34,753 bases of DNA from Treponema sp. (GTDB taxonomy: Bacteria; Spirochaetota; Spirochaetia; Treponematales; Breznakiellaceae), in NCBI GenBank assembly GCA_031265825.1, contig JAISCD010000095.1, positions 1-34,753 on the forward strand. The letters are read 5' to 3'. Both the position numbers and the translations under genes were made by a program. Under the pieces are notes generated by a model. That model was not told the DNA's origin. It saw only the letters and a list, made by a program, of their open reading frames with translations, and ran no database searches. Shown here in pieces: positions 11,121 to 33,516 of the stretch. Position 1 is the first letter of the stretch. The number at the start of each line of letters is the position of its first letter.

Positions 11121-11349
11121 CCTAATCTGAAGCAAACGAGTACTCGGATGAAGCAAATTAGTACTCGGACGGAACAGCCTAGTACTCGGACGAAGCAGAT
11201 TAGCACTCCGACAGAGTAAATTAGTACTCTGATGTAACAGACTAGTACTCGCGCAGAACAAACGAGTACTCGGACAGAACGGATTAGTACTTGGACGGGG
11301 TAAATTAGTACTCGGATGAAACAAAACAGTACTCGGATAGATGGCTTAA
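11121..11349. repeat. 21-bp tandem array (GTACTCGGAC type)
   Basis: Ten units of exactly 21 bp begin at 11140 and repeat GTACTCGGACRGAACARAYTA with scattered changes; one decayed unit precedes them (11121-11139). AGTACT is regenerated at most junctions. The array fills nearly the whole gap between paralog 4 and the polyprenyl synthase. A reading frame on the minus strand gives heptads such as RPSTNLL, but it has no ribosome site. The core ACTCGGAC is shared with the 21-bp array at 19433-19663. Confidence 0.85.
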
Positions 11350-19432: not shown

Positions 19433-19663
19433 ACTCGGACACGGGAACGCGAGGCTCGGACACGGGGATAAGAGGCTCGGACACGGGAACACGAGGCTCG
19501 GACACGGGAACGAGAGGCTCGGACACAGGAACAGAAGGCTCGGACACGGGAATGAGACACTCGGACGCGGGAACGCGAGGCTCGGACACGGGAATGAGAG
19601 GCTCGGACGCGGGAACAGAAGGCTCGGACACGGGAATGAGAGGCTCGGACACGGGAACGCAGA
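19433..19663. repeat. 21-bp tandem array (GCTCGGACACGGGAAC type)
   Basis: Eleven 21-bp units repeat GCTCGGACACGGGAAYGMGAG with few changes. Because 21 is a multiple of three and the unit lacks stops, several frames stay open (VSEPLIP heptads on the minus strand, GSDTGTR on the plus). It shares phase, length and the CTCGGAC core with the array at 11121-11349. Confidence 0.85.
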
Positions 19664-29391: not shown

Positions 29392-30468
29392 TTAGCTCAC
29401 ATACTCGTTAAGAGGCTTAACCCTGTATTGCAGGATAGGCATCTTATCCGTAGTCACATAGCCAGCCGAGGCGTTTATTACGTCGGGAAGCCTGCCGACT
29501 ACAGTGGCGCAGGTTAGTTCAACCGTGGCGGGACGATTGATAATCACTTCCGTCTCTGGTTCTCCAATAAGCGTCCAATCGTTTTGGTCGAATTCGTCAG
29601 GCGCATATACCTTACCGATACATTCAGATTCAATAACCACCCCTTCCTTAGTTTTAGTAGTTACAACCGCGGACATCCCCGTTGCATACCCCGCAGGCAC
29701 AGTCATGTTCAAAGTAGAACTCTCCAAGTCCTTACAGTATGTTTGAGGAACAGTCTTTTGCGTCTGCCTAACTACGGTGAAACCAAGTTTGTCGCAGAGC
29801 CAGCCGTTGACATTCCACATATACGACGGCAAATAAGAGCCAGATTCGATACTCTTTTGCCTTTCATCGTCGCTAACCTTATCAGCAGAAGCGATCTCCC
29901 TATCAAACGTGGCTAAGTCAAGTCCCGCTCCATGCGCCTTTGCAAGAGCTATGCCATAATCTTCGACGTTGTAACTAGACTTTCCTGTTATCTTAGTAAT
30001 TTTGTGAGTAGCCCCAGAGAGGACAGTTATCAAATTACCCCAAAAGACATCCTGATAACCCGAACCGCAAATGGTACAGTTGTTCTTCTTTGCAAGCTCG
30101 TCGATTTCCTTGGTCAGTGTAGGGGAAGAATTTTGAGGATAAAAGGCTTCCTCACAGGTTGAGATTGCGTTCACCCCTGTCTTTGCACAGGTCAGGAATG
30201 GAACCCGAAGGTCTTGGATAAGACTCATGGTAGTAACAATACAAACGTCAGGCTTGTCTTTGACAAAGACTGCCTCCGCCTCTTTAGCGTCTTGGACAAC
30301 CACGCCCTTTTTGCCGCCTCCTATGATGTCGCCAATATCCTTGCCAATCACTTCGGGACGCACGTCAAATGCGCATACAATCTCCGCGCCTTTTTCGTAC
30401 ACATAGCGCATCGTATAGACCGACATCTTGCCGCAACCATACTGGGCGACCTTTAATTTTCTATTCAT
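29392..30468 (-). CDS. 2,4-diaminopentanoate dehydrogenase-like oxidoreductase
   Basis: This 358-aa NAD(P)-dependent dehydrogenase has the dihydrodipicolinate-reductase-type fold. KVAQYGCGKMSVYTMRYVYE (6-25) is the Rossmann entry, and GKDIGDIIG matches the block typical of the diaminopentanoate dehydrogenase (Ord) family in ornithine fermentation. GSGYQDVFWGNLITVLSG is a second family block. Length matches (about 350 aa). No ornithine-pathway partners (OraS/E, OrtA/B) are in the window, so the substrate is uncertain. GGAGG lies 7 nt before the ATG and a strong terminator follows, so it is monocistronic. Confidence 0.8.
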   Translation of the reverse strand: MNRKLKVAQYGCGKMSVYTMRYVYEKGAEIVCAFDVRPEVIGKDIGDIIGGGKKGVVVQDAKEAEAVFVKDKPDVCIVTTMSLIQDLRVPFLTCAKTGVNAISTCEEAFYPQNSSPTLTKEIDELAKKNNCTICGSGYQDVFWGNLITVLSGATHKITKITGKSSYNVEDYGIALAKAHGAGLDLATFDREIASADKVSDDERQKSIESGSYLPSYMWNVNGWLCDKLGFTVVRQTQKTVPQTYCKDLESSTLNMTVPAGYATGMSAVVTTKTKEGVVIESECIGKVYAPDEFDQNDWTLIGEPETEVIINRPATVELTCATVVGRLPDVINASAGYVTTDKMPILQYRVKPLNEYVS

Positions 30469-30554
30469 AAAACCTCCATAAATAGTTGATTCATCATTAT
30501 ATTATTGCACATATTTTCATTTGTCAAGATTTTTTTAGATTTTTATAGAAATAC

Positions 30555-30584
30555 TTGACACAATTAAAGATTCATGTTTATAAT
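30555..30584 (+). promoter_or_regulatory. Promoter of methyltransferase cassette 1
   Basis: TTGACA (30555-30560), an 18-bp spacer and a perfect TATAAT (30579-30584). Transcription would start near 30591. The ATG at 30574 lies within the spacer, so it cannot be on this transcript. The block is nearly the same as 31574-31603. Confidence 0.75.
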
Positions 30585-31488
30585 AAATAAACAATCTTAT
30601 TGGAGATTGTACTTTAATAAGTTGAGGAGAAAACAATATGTTTACTACCCCCCCCCCCAGAAGATCTTTATCTTTGGATCTAGTTCTACTGGCAAAAGAC
30701 TTTTACCGATAATAGAAAAGCGGTATTCGGTTATCGGGTTTTTGGATAACGCCAAAAACCGATGGAATGAGAAAGTAGATGGCTATACAATATACCCGCC
30801 GTCACACATTAACAATGAGAAATATGACAGTATTATCATTGCTGCAACAACCGGGTATGAACCGGTAACAGAACAATTGGTTGCAATGGGCGTTGATAGA
30901 GGAAAAATAAATACGGAATATGTGGTTGTTCCTGTAAAAAGTCGCATAACATTTTTGGAAAAACTTGGTGAGATATTTACTGAAAAGCGTATTGACGGCT
31001 GTGTTGCGGAAGGCGGCGTTTTTCAAGGTGAGTTTGCCAAAGAAATCAACAGGGTATTTCCAACAAAGAAGTTGTATTTGTTTGATACCTTTTCAGGCTT
31101 TGACAAAAGAGACATTGATACGGAACAACAAAACCAGTATTCAGAATTCGGCGAATCGCATTTAAGTAATACAAGTGAGGAACTTGTAATGGGAAAGATG
31201 AAGTTTCCCGAAATGTGTATAATAAAAAAAGGCTATTTCCCCGAAACAACCGCAGGAGTTTCTGAAAAGTTTTGTTTTGTGAATCTTGATTTCGATCTAT
31301 ATCAGCCCATACTTGCGGGAATTGAATATTTCTACCCACGCATGGTAAAAGGCGGCGTAATACTAATCCACGACTATTTTTCTGAAGGCTATAAAGGCGT
31401 GAAAGAAGCCGTCAAAGAGTTTGACAGAAAGAACGGAATAAATGTTTTCCCCATCGGCGATGGAATAAGTATAGGAATATATTGTTAG
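30574..31488 (+). CDS. TylF/MycF-like methyltransferase, cassette 1 (poly-C; apparently phase-OFF)
   Basis: The frame encodes an N-terminal Rossmann-like part (KIFIFGSSSTGKRLLPIIEK, GFLDN) and a C-terminal TylF-type SAM-dependent O-methyltransferase (VAEGGVFQGEFAKEINRVFP, FVNLDFDLYQPI, KGGVILIHDYF), probably acting on a sugar. As given the frame opens at ATG 30574, but that ATG is inside the promoter. The ATG with a ribosome site (GAGGAGAAAAC, ATG 30638) is followed by 11 C residues (30648-30658), and in that frame translation ends after 24 codons at TAA 30710-30712. With 9 or 12 C residues the whole gene would be in frame. The gene is AT-rich. I infer slipped-strand phase variation. Confidence 0.8.
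   Translation: MFIINKQSYWRLYFNKLRRKQYVYYPPPQKIFIFGSSSTGKRLLPIIEKRYSVIGFLDNAKNRWNEKVDGYTIYPPSHINNEKYDSIIIAATTGYEPVTEQLVAMGVDRGKINTEYVVVPVKSRITFLEKLGEIFTEKRIDGCVAEGGVFQGEFAKEINRVFPTKKLYLFDTFSGFDKRDIDTEQQNQYSEFGESHLSNTSEELVMGKMKFPEMCIIKKGYFPETTAGVSEKFCFVNLDFDLYQPILAGIEYFYPRMVKGGVILIHDYFSEGYKGVKEAVKEFDRKNGINVFPIGDGISIGIYC
30648..30658 (+). repeat. 11-C homopolymer tract in cassette 1
   Basis: Eleven consecutive C residues start 10 nt after the first base of the ATG at 30638. Tracts of this length slip readily in replication. The tract is followed by AGAAGATCTTT, exactly as in cassette 2. Confidence 0.95.
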
Positions 31489-31489
31489 A

Positions 31490-31551
31490 ACGGCGTAAAG
31501 CAAAAGACGGCGCAGGGTGTCCGAGCCTTTACGCCGTCTTTTGAAATTTTT
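31490..31551 (+). terminator. Overlapping alternative hairpins after methyltransferase cassette 1
   Basis: Stem A: ACGGCGTAAAG (31490-31500) with CTTTACGCCGT (31527-31537). Stem B: AAAAGACGGCG (31502-31512) with CGCCGTCTTTT (31532-31542), followed by GAAATTTTT. The 3' arms overlap, so only one stem forms at a time. Stem B plus the T-run looks like a terminator. Confidence 0.6.
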
Positions 31552-31573
31552 GTCCATTTTTACAAATGGACGC

Positions 31574-31603
31574 TTGACACAATCAAGATTTCATGTTTAT
31601 ATG
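31574..31603 (+). promoter_or_regulatory. Promoter of methyltransferase cassette 2
   Basis: TTGACA (31574-31579), an 18-bp spacer and TATATG (31598-31603). Around it, ACACAATCAAGATTTCATGT is nearly identical to the cassette 1 promoter; the -10 box is weaker here. Confidence 0.65.
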
Positions 31604-31637
31604 TAAATAATCATTTTATAGGTTTAAGGAGAAAAAT

Positions 31638-32327
31638 ATGTTATACCCCCCCCCCCAGAAGATCTTTGGTTTTGATTTTGGAAACCCGTATGAATACGAA
31701 AATGGTTTCTATTTAACAAGCGCACCGCCGCGTATTGCAAAGAGCATCGCTCATTATGAATTATATAAAAAAATTGTCAATTTACCCGGAGAGGTAGTTG
31801 AATGTGGGGTTTTTAAAGGAATGTCATTAATTCGCTTTGCGACATATCGAGAAATTATGGAAAGCCAATTTTCCAGAAAAATAATTGGATTTGATGCGTT
31901 TGGCAAATTTCCCGATAACGTATCAATGGCGGTGGATAAAGACTTTATAAAAAACTTTGAAACCGATGCCGGCGATGGAATATCAAAGGAAGACTTGGAA
32001 GATATTTTAAAATATAAAAACTTTCAAAATATCTTTCTTATAAAGGGATTGATACCTGATACGTTTTCTGAATATTTTGGGAAAAAATCGGCGACTCAAA
32101 TTGCTTTATTACATATTGACGTTGATGTATATGAAGCGACAAAAGCCTGTTTGGATCATTTATATGACAGAGTTGTAAAAGGTGGAATTATTGTATTTGA
32201 TGATTATGGAGAAGTTGACGGCGCGACAAAGGCGATCAATGAATTTATAAGCTCCCTTGGAAAGGATGGTAGTATCATCCAAAAATCGCCTTATAATTAT
32301 GTTCCAACATTTATGATAAAAGAATAA
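31638..32327 (+). CDS. TylF/MycF-like methyltransferase, cassette 2 (poly-C; phase-ON)
   Basis: This 229-aa SAM-dependent O-methyltransferase of the TylF/MycF type, probably modifying a glycan or other secondary product, has VVECGVFKGMSLIRFA (SAM site), KIIGFDAFGKFPD, LLHIDVDVYEATKACLDHLY (metal and catalytic acidic residues) and KGGIIVFDDYGEVDGA. Here the ATG with ribosome site AAGGAGA is in frame across 11 C residues (31646-31656), giving an N-terminus MLYPPPQKIF. Loss or gain of one C would stop it early. It shares its promoter, leader, C-tract and the next 10 nt with cassette 1, but the protein body differs. The gene is AT-rich, so probably acquired. Confidence 0.87.
   Translation: MLYPPPQKIFGFDFGNPYEYENGFYLTSAPPRIAKSIAHYELYKKIVNLPGEVVECGVFKGMSLIRFATYREIMESQFSRKIIGFDAFGKFPDNVSMAVDKDFIKNFETDAGDGISKEDLEDILKYKNFQNIFLIKGLIPDTFSEYFGKKSATQIALLHIDVDVYEATKACLDHLYDRVVKGGIIVFDDYGEVDGATKAINEFISSLGKDGSIIQKSPYNYVPTFMIKE
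31646..31656 (+). repeat. 11-C homopolymer tract in cassette 2
   Basis: Eleven C residues start 8 nt after the first base of the ATG at 31638; at this length the gene is in frame. The flank AGAAGATCTTT matches cassette 1. Confidence 0.95.
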
Positions 32328-32347
32328 TTATAAATCAAGAATATTAT

Positions 32348-32388
32348 GCGTAAAGCAAAACGTAGCATAAATGACTGTTTATGCTACG
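32348..32388 (+). terminator. Hairpin after methyltransferase cassette 2
   Basis: CGTAGCATAAA (32361-32371), loop TGACTG and TTTATGCTACG (32378-32388) form an 11-bp perfect stem, without a following T-run. It is preceded by GCGTAAAGCAAAA (32348-32360), identical to 31493-31505 after cassette 1, so the two genes share a 3' flank as well as a 5' flank. Confidence 0.6.
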
Positions 32389-32412: not shown

Positions 32413-33516
32413 ATGGAAAGAAAATACAGACGTTACCTTATTATCGCAGGGATTTTACTCTTTGTCATTTACATTTTCGCGGCCGCTCAGCCTGTTCCAC
32501 AAGAGACTATCCTCTCTTCTCGGTGGATACATTCTCTTGTCTCCACCTACCCTATGCCTTCACGAGAGAGAGAAACGGAAGACATTCAACAAGATGAATT
32601 GATTCCGTTTCAACTTGGAAACTACTTTGGATATGTTGATAAAGACGGCAATTTCACTATAAACCAGATAAAGCGGGGCTATATATCCCTATCAAAGCAA
32701 AACTGGGCAGAATATACCGCGATTCCCGAAAGAATAACCGTCCGTAACTCTAAAAACGAGCAAGTTCTTTCTATAGATACAGACATGGGCTATCCCTTGT
32801 TTCTGGATAACAGAGTGTTTCTCATAAACAGAGAACAAAACGCCGTTTACAGCATCAACGAACAAGGCGAGACTAATTGGTCTTATGCTTTCGCGTCCCC
32901 GCTTACCTGTATTGATGCGGCATCTGGGTTTTTGCTCGTCGGGTCTTTGGACGGCAAAATAGAAGTGCTTGACGACAACGGAATATGTATTTTCTCCTTT
33001 GAACCGAGCGGTTCCCGCCTATCAATCATTGTGGGATGCGCTTTTTCAAGAGACGGTTCAAAGATCGCCATCATATCCGGCATTGACGAACAACGCTTCT
33101 TATTTATGGAAAAACTTGGCGATACGCTTGAGAACGAATACCGTGTAATTTATCACGAATTTTTGGGGCGAGGGTTTAGACGACCCGTGCACGTTACCTT
33201 TGTTGATGATGATAACAAGGTCGCGTTTGAACGACAGGCGGGTCTTGGACTCTACGACATACCGACGCGCGCGTCCATCGCCTTACCGATGAAAGGCGAA
33301 GTGGTAGCTATCGACGAAGACGGTAGCGGCGGACAACTTTTCGTCATTACTTCTCAATCGTCAGACGATAAATATCTGACGACCATTCAGTTTCCCGGAA
33401 CCGTCATCGGACAATCCCACTTCAAGAGTAAATACATATTCATGGATAGACAAGGAACGACTCTTTACATCGGCGGTGGCACAACCCTTGCCGCCTTTGA
33501 AATAAGCAAGAAATAG
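32413..33516 (+). CDS. Membrane-anchored beta-propeller-like protein of unknown function
   Basis: This 367-aa protein has one N-terminal transmembrane segment (YLIIAGILLFVIYIFAAAQP, residues 8-27), then an outer part with repeated strand-turn blocks that resemble WD40/PQQ propeller blades. Examples: NEQGETNWSYAFASPLTCID, GFLLVGSLDGKIEVLDDNG and CAFSRDGSKIAIISG. No catalytic residues are evident; a scaffold or sensing role in the periplasm is possible. No clear ribosome site precedes the ATG. The gene is convergent with uppP, with only 20 bp between the stops. Confidence 0.75.
   Translation: MERKYRRYLIIAGILLFVIYIFAAAQPVPQETILSSRWIHSLVSTYPMPSRERETEDIQQDELIPFQLGNYFGYVDKDGNFTINQIKRGYISLSKQNWAEYTAIPERITVRNSKNEQVLSIDTDMGYPLFLDNRVFLINREQNAVYSINEQGETNWSYAFASPLTCIDAASGFLLVGSLDGKIEVLDDNGICIFSFEPSGSRLSIIVGCAFSRDGSKIAIISGIDEQRFLFMEKLGDTLENEYRVIYHEFLGRGFRRPVHVTFVDDDNKVAFERQAGLGLYDIPTRASIALPMKGEVVAIDEDGSGGQLFVITSQSSDDKYLTTIQFPGTVIGQSHFKSKYIFMDRQGTTLYIGGGTTLAAFEISKK

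What the first reader, a model, noticed from the sequence alone, without database searches (positions are those of the whole stretch)
30555..32388. Twin poly-C methyltransferase cassettes with shared 5' and 3' flanks
Two different TylF-like methyltransferase genes carry nearly the same module in order: TTGACA-18-TATAAT-type promoter, AGGAGA ribosome site, ATG, exactly 11 C residues, AGAAGATCTTT, a divergent gene body, and GCGTAAAGCAAAA followed by a hairpin. Homopolymers right after a start codon are the classic sign of slipped-strand ON/OFF switching, known for surface-modifying methyltransferases in Campylobacter and for poly-G tracts in Treponema. Shared flanks around unlike bodies suggest an exchangeable phase-variable cassette family, which I have not seen described for this lineage.
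Basis: partly seen in the sequence, partly recalled or inferred. Interest (0 to 1): 0.87.

Follow-up and report, generated by a model that had tools for sequence, protein, structure and literature searches.

The report
Poly-C switches on sugar methyltransferase genes
In an uncultured Treponema (closest relatives are Treponema metagenome bins, probably from termite guts), two neighbouring sugar-methyltransferase genes each carry a run of 11 C's just after the start codon that very probably flips the gene on and off, and the genome holds about a hundred such runs, a dozen or more inside sugar-coat-type genes, so this is a known kind of switch, abundant in a group where I found no earlier description.

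Summary
Both C11 tracts are real (30648-30658, 31646-31656), with a shared leader (71% identity, E 5e-11) and a shared 13-nt 3' motif followed by different hairpins. Two corrections: 7 nt (TTTACTA) and 5 nt (TTATA) separate ATG from the tract, and the frames differ. As assembled, gene 1 (PglD-like N-terminus plus TylF methyltransferase) is OFF: 24 codons, while its 275-codon body is intact and in frame at 9 or 12 C. Gene 2 (TylF; best solved relative CalS11, TDP-rhamnose 3'-O-methyltransferase) is ON at 11 C.

The tracts belong to a genome-wide class. The 1.8 Mb draft holds 62 exact C11 runs against 4 exact C8 runs. At least 13 tracts lie inside genes, mostly methyltransferases, glycosyltransferases, acetyltransferases and similar; 5 are in frame and 8 out of frame, as random switching would give. 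Tract positions recur in a congener at ~88% DNA identity.

The 'exchangeable cassette family' is not supported: the AGAAGATCTTT flank occurs nowhere else in this genome or close relatives, other tract genes have unrelated flanks, and the two bodies are distant homologues. A local leader duplication fits better. Verdict: slipped-strand contingency loci, a known mechanism, apparently undescribed in this lineage. Read-level length variation was not testable.

The parts
30555..30584 (+). Gene 1 promoter-like site, TTGACA-18-TATAAT
   Evidence: consensus scan 12 of 12; prediction only
30554..30676 (+). Gene 1 leader: copy 1 of the shared 5' module (promoter, ribosome site, ATG, tract, AGAAGATCTTT)
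   Evidence: 71% identity to the gene 2 leader, E 5.2e-11; alignment; repeats D1, D2
30625..30630 (+). Gene 1 ribosome-binding site AGGAGA
   Evidence: sequence
30638..30640 (+). Gene 1 start codon ATG, followed by TTTACTA
   Evidence: sequence; out of frame with the body at 11 C
30648..30658 (+). C11 tract 1; gene OFF at 11 C, in frame at 9 or 12
30658..31488 (+). Gene 1 body: PglD/NeuD-like N-terminal stretch and TylF-family O-methyltransferase, intact
   Evidence: Pfam TylF 2.8e-14, PglD_N 2.7e-4 below its cut-off; solved relatives 4cdz, 5i10, MycF-type 4x7u
31493..31505 (+). Shared 3' motif GCGTAAAGCAAAA, copy 1
   Evidence: exact, two copies in the window
31501..31543 (+). Hairpin after gene 1
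   Evidence: fold z -3.20
31574..31603 (+). Gene 2 promoter-like site, TTGACA-18-TATATG (weak -10)
   Evidence: sequence and alignment; not reported by the scan
31573..31674 (+). Gene 2 leader: copy 2 of the shared 5' module
31627..31632 (+). Gene 2 ribosome-binding site AGGAGA
   Evidence: sequence
31646..31656 (+). C11 tract 2; gene ON at 11 C (also 8 or 14)
31638..32327 (+). Gene 2: TylF-family sugar O-methyltransferase, 229 aa, in frame
   Evidence: ORF; Pfam TylF 7.3e-22; CalS11 6.5e-16
32348..32360 (+). Shared 3' motif GCGTAAAGCAAAA, copy 2
32361..32388 (+). Hairpin after gene 2; a terminator-like site only when read on the minus strand
   Evidence: fold z -3.13; scan

Best explanation
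The two genes are simple-sequence contingency loci. The C11 tract, a few bases inside each coding sequence, gains or loses C's by slipped-strand mispairing during replication and so puts the start codon in or out of frame with a sugar O-methyltransferase. Gene 1 (ON at 12 or 9 C) and gene 2 (ON at 11 C) switch independently, giving up to four combinations of methylation of, most likely, a surface or flagellar glycan or its sugar-nucleotide precursor. They are two members of a genome-wide set of about 100 C/G tracts, mostly of 10-12 nt. The shared 5' leader most likely arose by duplication of one leader, tract included, onto the neighbouring paralogous gene; gene 2 orthologues elsewhere start M..KEIFGF without a tract. 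Shown: tracts, frames, intact bodies, genome-wide class, tract positions kept in a congener. Inferred: slippage, switching, the glycan target, direction of the duplication.
For: Tract next to ATG and ribosome site; gene 1 OFF with an intact 275-codon body, gene 2 ON. C/G run lengths are bimodal in the own genome: 7:8, 8:2, 9:1, 10:18, 11:56, 12:15, 13:1 in 228 kb of stretches taken around tracts, and genome-wide 62 exact C11 against 4 exact C8. At least 13 intragenic tracts: 5 in frame, 8 out, including a Methyltransf_23 paralogue pair with one ON and one OFF copy. Functions are mainly envelope-sugar type: TylF, Methyltransf_23, hexapeptide transferase, GT8-like, GINT1_N; cytidylyltransferases carry tracts at their 3' ends. 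Tract positions are kept between species G000 and G009 at 88-89% DNA identity. Copies of tract-bearing repeats inside the genome differ in length, e.g. C10/C11 at 95% flank identity and C11/C12 at 84%. Solved relatives are sugar O-methyltransferases.
Against: No read-level or same-species length variation could be tested; no second assembly of the species was available. The genome is a 57%-complete draft, so some calls rest on partial contigs. Many tracts are intergenic, so the tract class may partly be a mutational feature of the genome rather than an adaptation. In the Methyltransf_23 pair both copies have C12, and the frame difference comes from a one-base indel beside the tract. The hexapeptide-transferase tract encodes poly-glycine in frame in both species. 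Surface targeting is inferred from families only; the window neighbours are not an obvious glycan cluster.
Confidence: 0.75

Rival explanations
1. An exchangeable cassette family: leader, tract and 3' motif form a mobile module that picks up different gene bodies.
For: Shared leader and shared 13-nt 3' motif around bodies only 26% alike; the pair is absent upstream of the same gene in congener G011; close gene 2 orthologues are sporadic, in 4 of 200 family genomes counting the own one.
Against: The flank is joined to no other gene in the own genome, and no relative among 59 matches it with fewer than 3 mismatches. The other tract genes have unrelated leaders. Only the two adjacent genes share it, which a local duplication explains. 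No recombinase or attC-like site was demonstrated.
Confidence: 0.12
2. The tracts are a neutral by-product of a genome-wide bias towards C/G runs of about 11 nt; gene 1 is simply a frameshifted pseudogene.
For: About 100 tracts, many intergenic or inside repeated elements; many neighbouring genera have few.
Against: Gene 1's body has no other stop or frameshift. Intragenic tracts fall mostly in sugar-modifying and envelope-type genes. Tract positions persist across species. A random tail of runs would fall off with length, not peak at 11.
Confidence: 0.18
3. The tract lengths are assembly or sequencing artefacts.
For: Some very long poly-C runs sit at contig ends (98, 19, 18 nt) and look artefactual.
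Against: The two window tracts lie inside a 34.7 kb contig with unique flanks; 10-12 nt runs are short enough to be spanned by single reads; orthologous tracts occur in an independent assembly; ordinary C8 runs are rare in the same genome.
Confidence: 0.03
4. The tracts act through RNA polymerase or ribosome slippage (a fixed mixture of products) rather than heritable switching.
For: Long C runs could also slip during transcription or translation; general knowledge, not tested here.
Against: Runs of A/T are the usual substrates for such slippage (general knowledge); homopolymer G/C tracts of this length are established sites of heritable length change in Campylobacter (PMC6321876) and T. pallidum (PMC7864442).
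Confidence: 0.07

Closest known systems
Poly-G/C contingency genes of Campylobacter (the phasome), including SAM-dependent methyltransferases
   Same: Homopolymeric C/G tracts inside genes for methyltransferases, sugar transferases and flagellar glycan modification; frame-based switching at similar lengths (PMC6321876).
   Different: [quoted passage not shown] here the coding strand often carries C and lengths peak sharply at 11. Different phylum; no variation demonstrated here.
Poly-G promoter tracts of Treponema pallidum (tprE, G, J, tprL, tp0126)
   Same: Treponemes; poly-G tracts of variable length controlling expression (PMC7864442).
   Different: Those best studied act on transcription of outer-membrane protein genes; the two genes here carry the tract inside the coding sequence after ATG.
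Homopolymeric tracts in cultivated treponemes (T. pedis, T. medium, T. phagedenis, T. denticola)
   Same: G/C tracts present and linked to some pseudogenes (PMC8049484).
   Different: 15-100 G plus C tracts per genome counted at 7 nt or more; here about 100 at 9 nt or more in a 57%-complete draft, peaked at 11.
TylF/MycF/NovP/CalS11 sugar O-methyltransferases
   Same: Both gene bodies match the family; CalS11 is the best solved relative of gene 2.
   Different: Antibiotic-pathway enzymes there; no antibiotic cluster seen here, and gene 1 has an added PglD-like N-terminal stretch.

Membership tests
Simple-sequence contingency (phase-variable) locus | Homopolymer of mutable length class (8 or more C/G) inside the coding sequence or promoter | tested here: met
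   C11 a few bases after ATG in both genes
Simple-sequence contingency (phase-variable) locus | Change of tract length switches the frame between ON and OFF with the rest of the gene intact | tested here: met
   Frame analysis: gene 1 in frame at 9/12, gene 2 at 8/11/14; bodies open
Simple-sequence contingency (phase-variable) locus | Tract length varies within a population or between isolates | not testable with these tools
   No reads or second assembly of the species; only length differences between repeated copies in the genome
Simple-sequence contingency (phase-variable) locus | Measured switching of expression or phenotype | not testable with these tools
   Needs culture or reporters
TylF-type O-methyltransferase (PF05711) | Profile score above the curated cut-off | tested here: met
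   53.5 and 78.3 bits against a cut-off of 23
TylF-type O-methyltransferase (PF05711) | Methyl transfer to a sugar hydroxyl | not testable with these tools
   Inferred from MycF, NovP and CalS11 relatives
Exchangeable cassette family | Same flanks around several unlike genes | tested here: not met
   Only the two adjacent, distantly homologous genes
T. pallidum-type poly-G promoter switch | Tract in the promoter or upstream of the transcription start | tested here: not met
   For these two genes the tract is downstream of ATG; some intergenic tracts elsewhere in the genome may be of this type

The most novel reading that the evidence does not exclude
Some treponemes of this family (at least this species, to a lesser degree congeners G009 and G011, and the separate genus of G024) run a genome-wide contingency system whose tracts are held close to a set length of 11 C/G, acting both inside envelope-sugar genes and in front of repeat-bearing intergenic units, so that surface chemistry is reshuffled in a symbiont rather than a pathogen.
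Probability: 0.35. Interest if true: 0.68.

Novelty: new member of a known kind. Interest (0 to 1): 0.5.

Why it matters
Contingency loci are studied mostly in pathogens, where immune escape is the usual explanation. A treponeme, probably a termite-gut symbiont, with about a hundred C11-type tracts, many in sugar-modifying genes, would make it possible to ask what else drives surface switching: phages, protist partners or competitors. The tracts also warn that automatic annotation will call many of these genes pseudogenes.

Tried and rejected
Exchangeable-cassette reading: searched the flank in the own genome and 59 relatives; only the two known copies. C47 hit to gene 2's 5' end: chance match in an unrelated gene. 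Alternative start for gene 1 at 30574 (in frame, 304 aa): rejected because it overlaps the -10 box and has no ribosome site. Integron attC sites in the 3' hairpins: considered from the inverted repeats after the genes; by eye the window repeats lack the usual AAC/GTT core, and no integrase search was made. Homologues of gene 1: none examined has a C/G tract at the start of the match. Taxonomy look-up by bin name failed. Literature on phase variation in termite treponemes: one irrelevant hit; other searches gave pathogens or nothing. The open library does not cover most subscription journals, so absence of a paper is weak evidence.

Full report
What is there. The window is contig C98 of a 1.81 Mb, 57%-complete draft genome. 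The nearest relatives of gene 2 lie in Treponema metagenome bins. That these are termite-gut bins is my reading of the isolate codes and was not checked. Two genes on the + strand lie between a diaminopentanoate-dehydrogenase-like gene (29392-30468, minus) and an unnamed conserved gene (32413-33516, plus) followed by bacA. Each has a TTGACA box, an AGGAGA ribosome site, ATG, a short spacer, C11, AGAAGATCTTT, and a TylF-family body; each ends with GCGTAAAGCAAAA and a hairpin.

Correction of the frame. The spacer between ATG and tract is TTTACTA in gene 1 and TTATA in gene 2. With 11 C gene 1 gives a 24-residue product; its body of 275 codons is intact and would be in frame at 9 or 12 C. Gene 2 is in frame at 11 C and gives 229 residues. 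An in-frame ATG for gene 1 at 30574 overlaps the -10 box and lacks a ribosome site, so I do not think it is used.

Gene functions. Gene 1 matches TylF (2.8e-14) and weakly, below the curated cut-off, the PglD N-terminal domain at its very start (also NeuD at 7.9e-4, far below its cut-off). Gene 2 matches TylF (7.3e-22). Solved relatives are sugar O-methyltransferases: CalS11, NovP, MycF. The two bodies are 26% identical over 159 aa. So 'unlike bodies' means distant paralogues.

Genome-wide class. The genome holds 105 C/G tract starts of 9 or more nt, a few of them very long runs at contig ends that look artefactual. In 228 kb of tract-centred stretches the length distribution is 6:91, 7:8, 8:2, 9:1, 10:18, 11:56, 12:15, 13:1. 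Runs of 9 or more are over-counted by the way the stretches were chosen, but 7 and 8 are not, so the gap is real; genome-wide counts agree: 62 exact C11 against 4 exact C8. Among 59 relatives G024 (56 against 10), G009 (27 against 17) and G011 (20 against 12) show the same excess; G019 has many C11 (61) but far more C8 (329), an ordinary tail; most others have 0-5 C11. So the excess is patchy across the family.

Other tract genes in the same genome. Tract just after ATG: gene 1 (out), gene 2, three Methyltransf_23 genes at L099 (out), L137 and L158 (out), and a GH71/GH99-like protein at L120. Tract inside the gene: two hexapeptide transferases (L083 in; L324 out, the latter by eye), a radical-SAM-like gene by eye (L324, out), a GT8-like gene (L147, out; below the curated cut-off), a citrate-lyase-ligase-type gene (L144, out; one gene is assumed), a PTS EIIBCA permease (L160, out) and GINT1_N (L116, in). 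That is 5 in frame and 8 out of 13, close to the one-third in frame that random lengths give. Tracts at the 3' ends or junctions of genes: cytidylyltransferases (L161 twice, L137), a HAD/nucleotidyltransferase junction (L084), a GT2-like gene (L147) and an ornithine-cyclodeaminase family gene (L148).

Conservation. The L083/L084 pair has syntenic counterparts in G009 (L258/L257) at 88-89% DNA identity, with G11-G12 tracts at the same places and slightly different edges. A similar gene in G010 (L270) also carries a tract at its 3' end. Copies of repeated tract elements inside the own genome differ in tract length (C10/C11, C11/C12) with 84-95% identical flanks. This is indirect support for mutable tracts.

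Relatives of the two genes. Gene 2 orthologues in two other genera (75-77% identity) start with M..KEIFGF and have no tract; a third is truncated. The K-I-F codons within AGAAGATCTTT are native to gene 2's family and also fit the PglD-type start of gene 1. I infer that one leader with its tract was copied onto the neighbouring gene at this short match. The pair is absent upstream of the same conserved gene in congener G011.

Mechanism. Slipped-strand change of the C tract with frame-based switching is the best reading; each gene would switch on its own. Shown: anatomy, frames, genome-wide class, positional conservation. Inferred: slippage, heritable switching, and a surface or flagellar glycan as target.

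Known work. T. pallidum has variable poly-G tracts in promoters and some genes (PMC7864442; 76% of 17 tracts tested varied). Cultivated treponemes have 15-100 G/C tracts of 7 nt or more (PMC8049484). Campylobacter carries poly-G/C tracts in many SAM-dependent methyltransferase and flagellar glycan genes (PMC6321876). I found no paper on this in termite treponemes, within an open-licence library only. The finding is therefore a new member of a known kind.

Noticed in passing
L094, L095, L096, L100, L103, L104, L107, L133, L135, L154 (own genome): Many intergenic C11 tracts lie about 60-160 nt from arrays of 21-nt tandem repeats (7-codon units); the genome is unusually rich in 21-nt minisatellites, also in the window at 11128-11316 and 19434-19659.
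   Followed up: partly
about 70 tract flanks of the own genome: The base after the C tract is A or G in 70 of 71 cases and is followed by an AT-rich block at about +5 to +22; TATAAT-like boxes are common there, so some intergenic tracts may be promoter elements.
   Followed up: partly
L089, L091, L092, L093, L112, L117 and 13 others: A family of 19 tracts (C9-C12, mostly C10) sits in an intergenic repeat, typically with GGTCTTCCG before the tract and GTGGTGCGCCCCC further upstream.
   Followed up: no
L160 (G000 C109): A PTS EIIBCA sugar permease has a G11 tract between the EIIB and EIIC domains and is out of frame as assembled.
   Followed up: partly
L084 and L257: A tract at the junction of a HAD hydrolase and a nucleotidyltransferase-like gene, kept in two species; some tract lengths would fuse the two proteins.
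   Followed up: partly
L256, L265, L293 (G009, G011): C/G11 tracts near signal peptides or inside large putative surface lipoproteins of congeners.
   Followed up: no
G000 contigs C4, C23, C27, C75, C81, near contig ends: Poly-C or poly-G runs of 14-98 nt, probably assembly artefacts.
   Followed up: no
L004 1160-1200, L005 505-540: CATAACAG...CTGT-type inverted repeats after the gene 2 orthologues; a resemblance to integron attC sites was considered but not tested.
   Followed up: no
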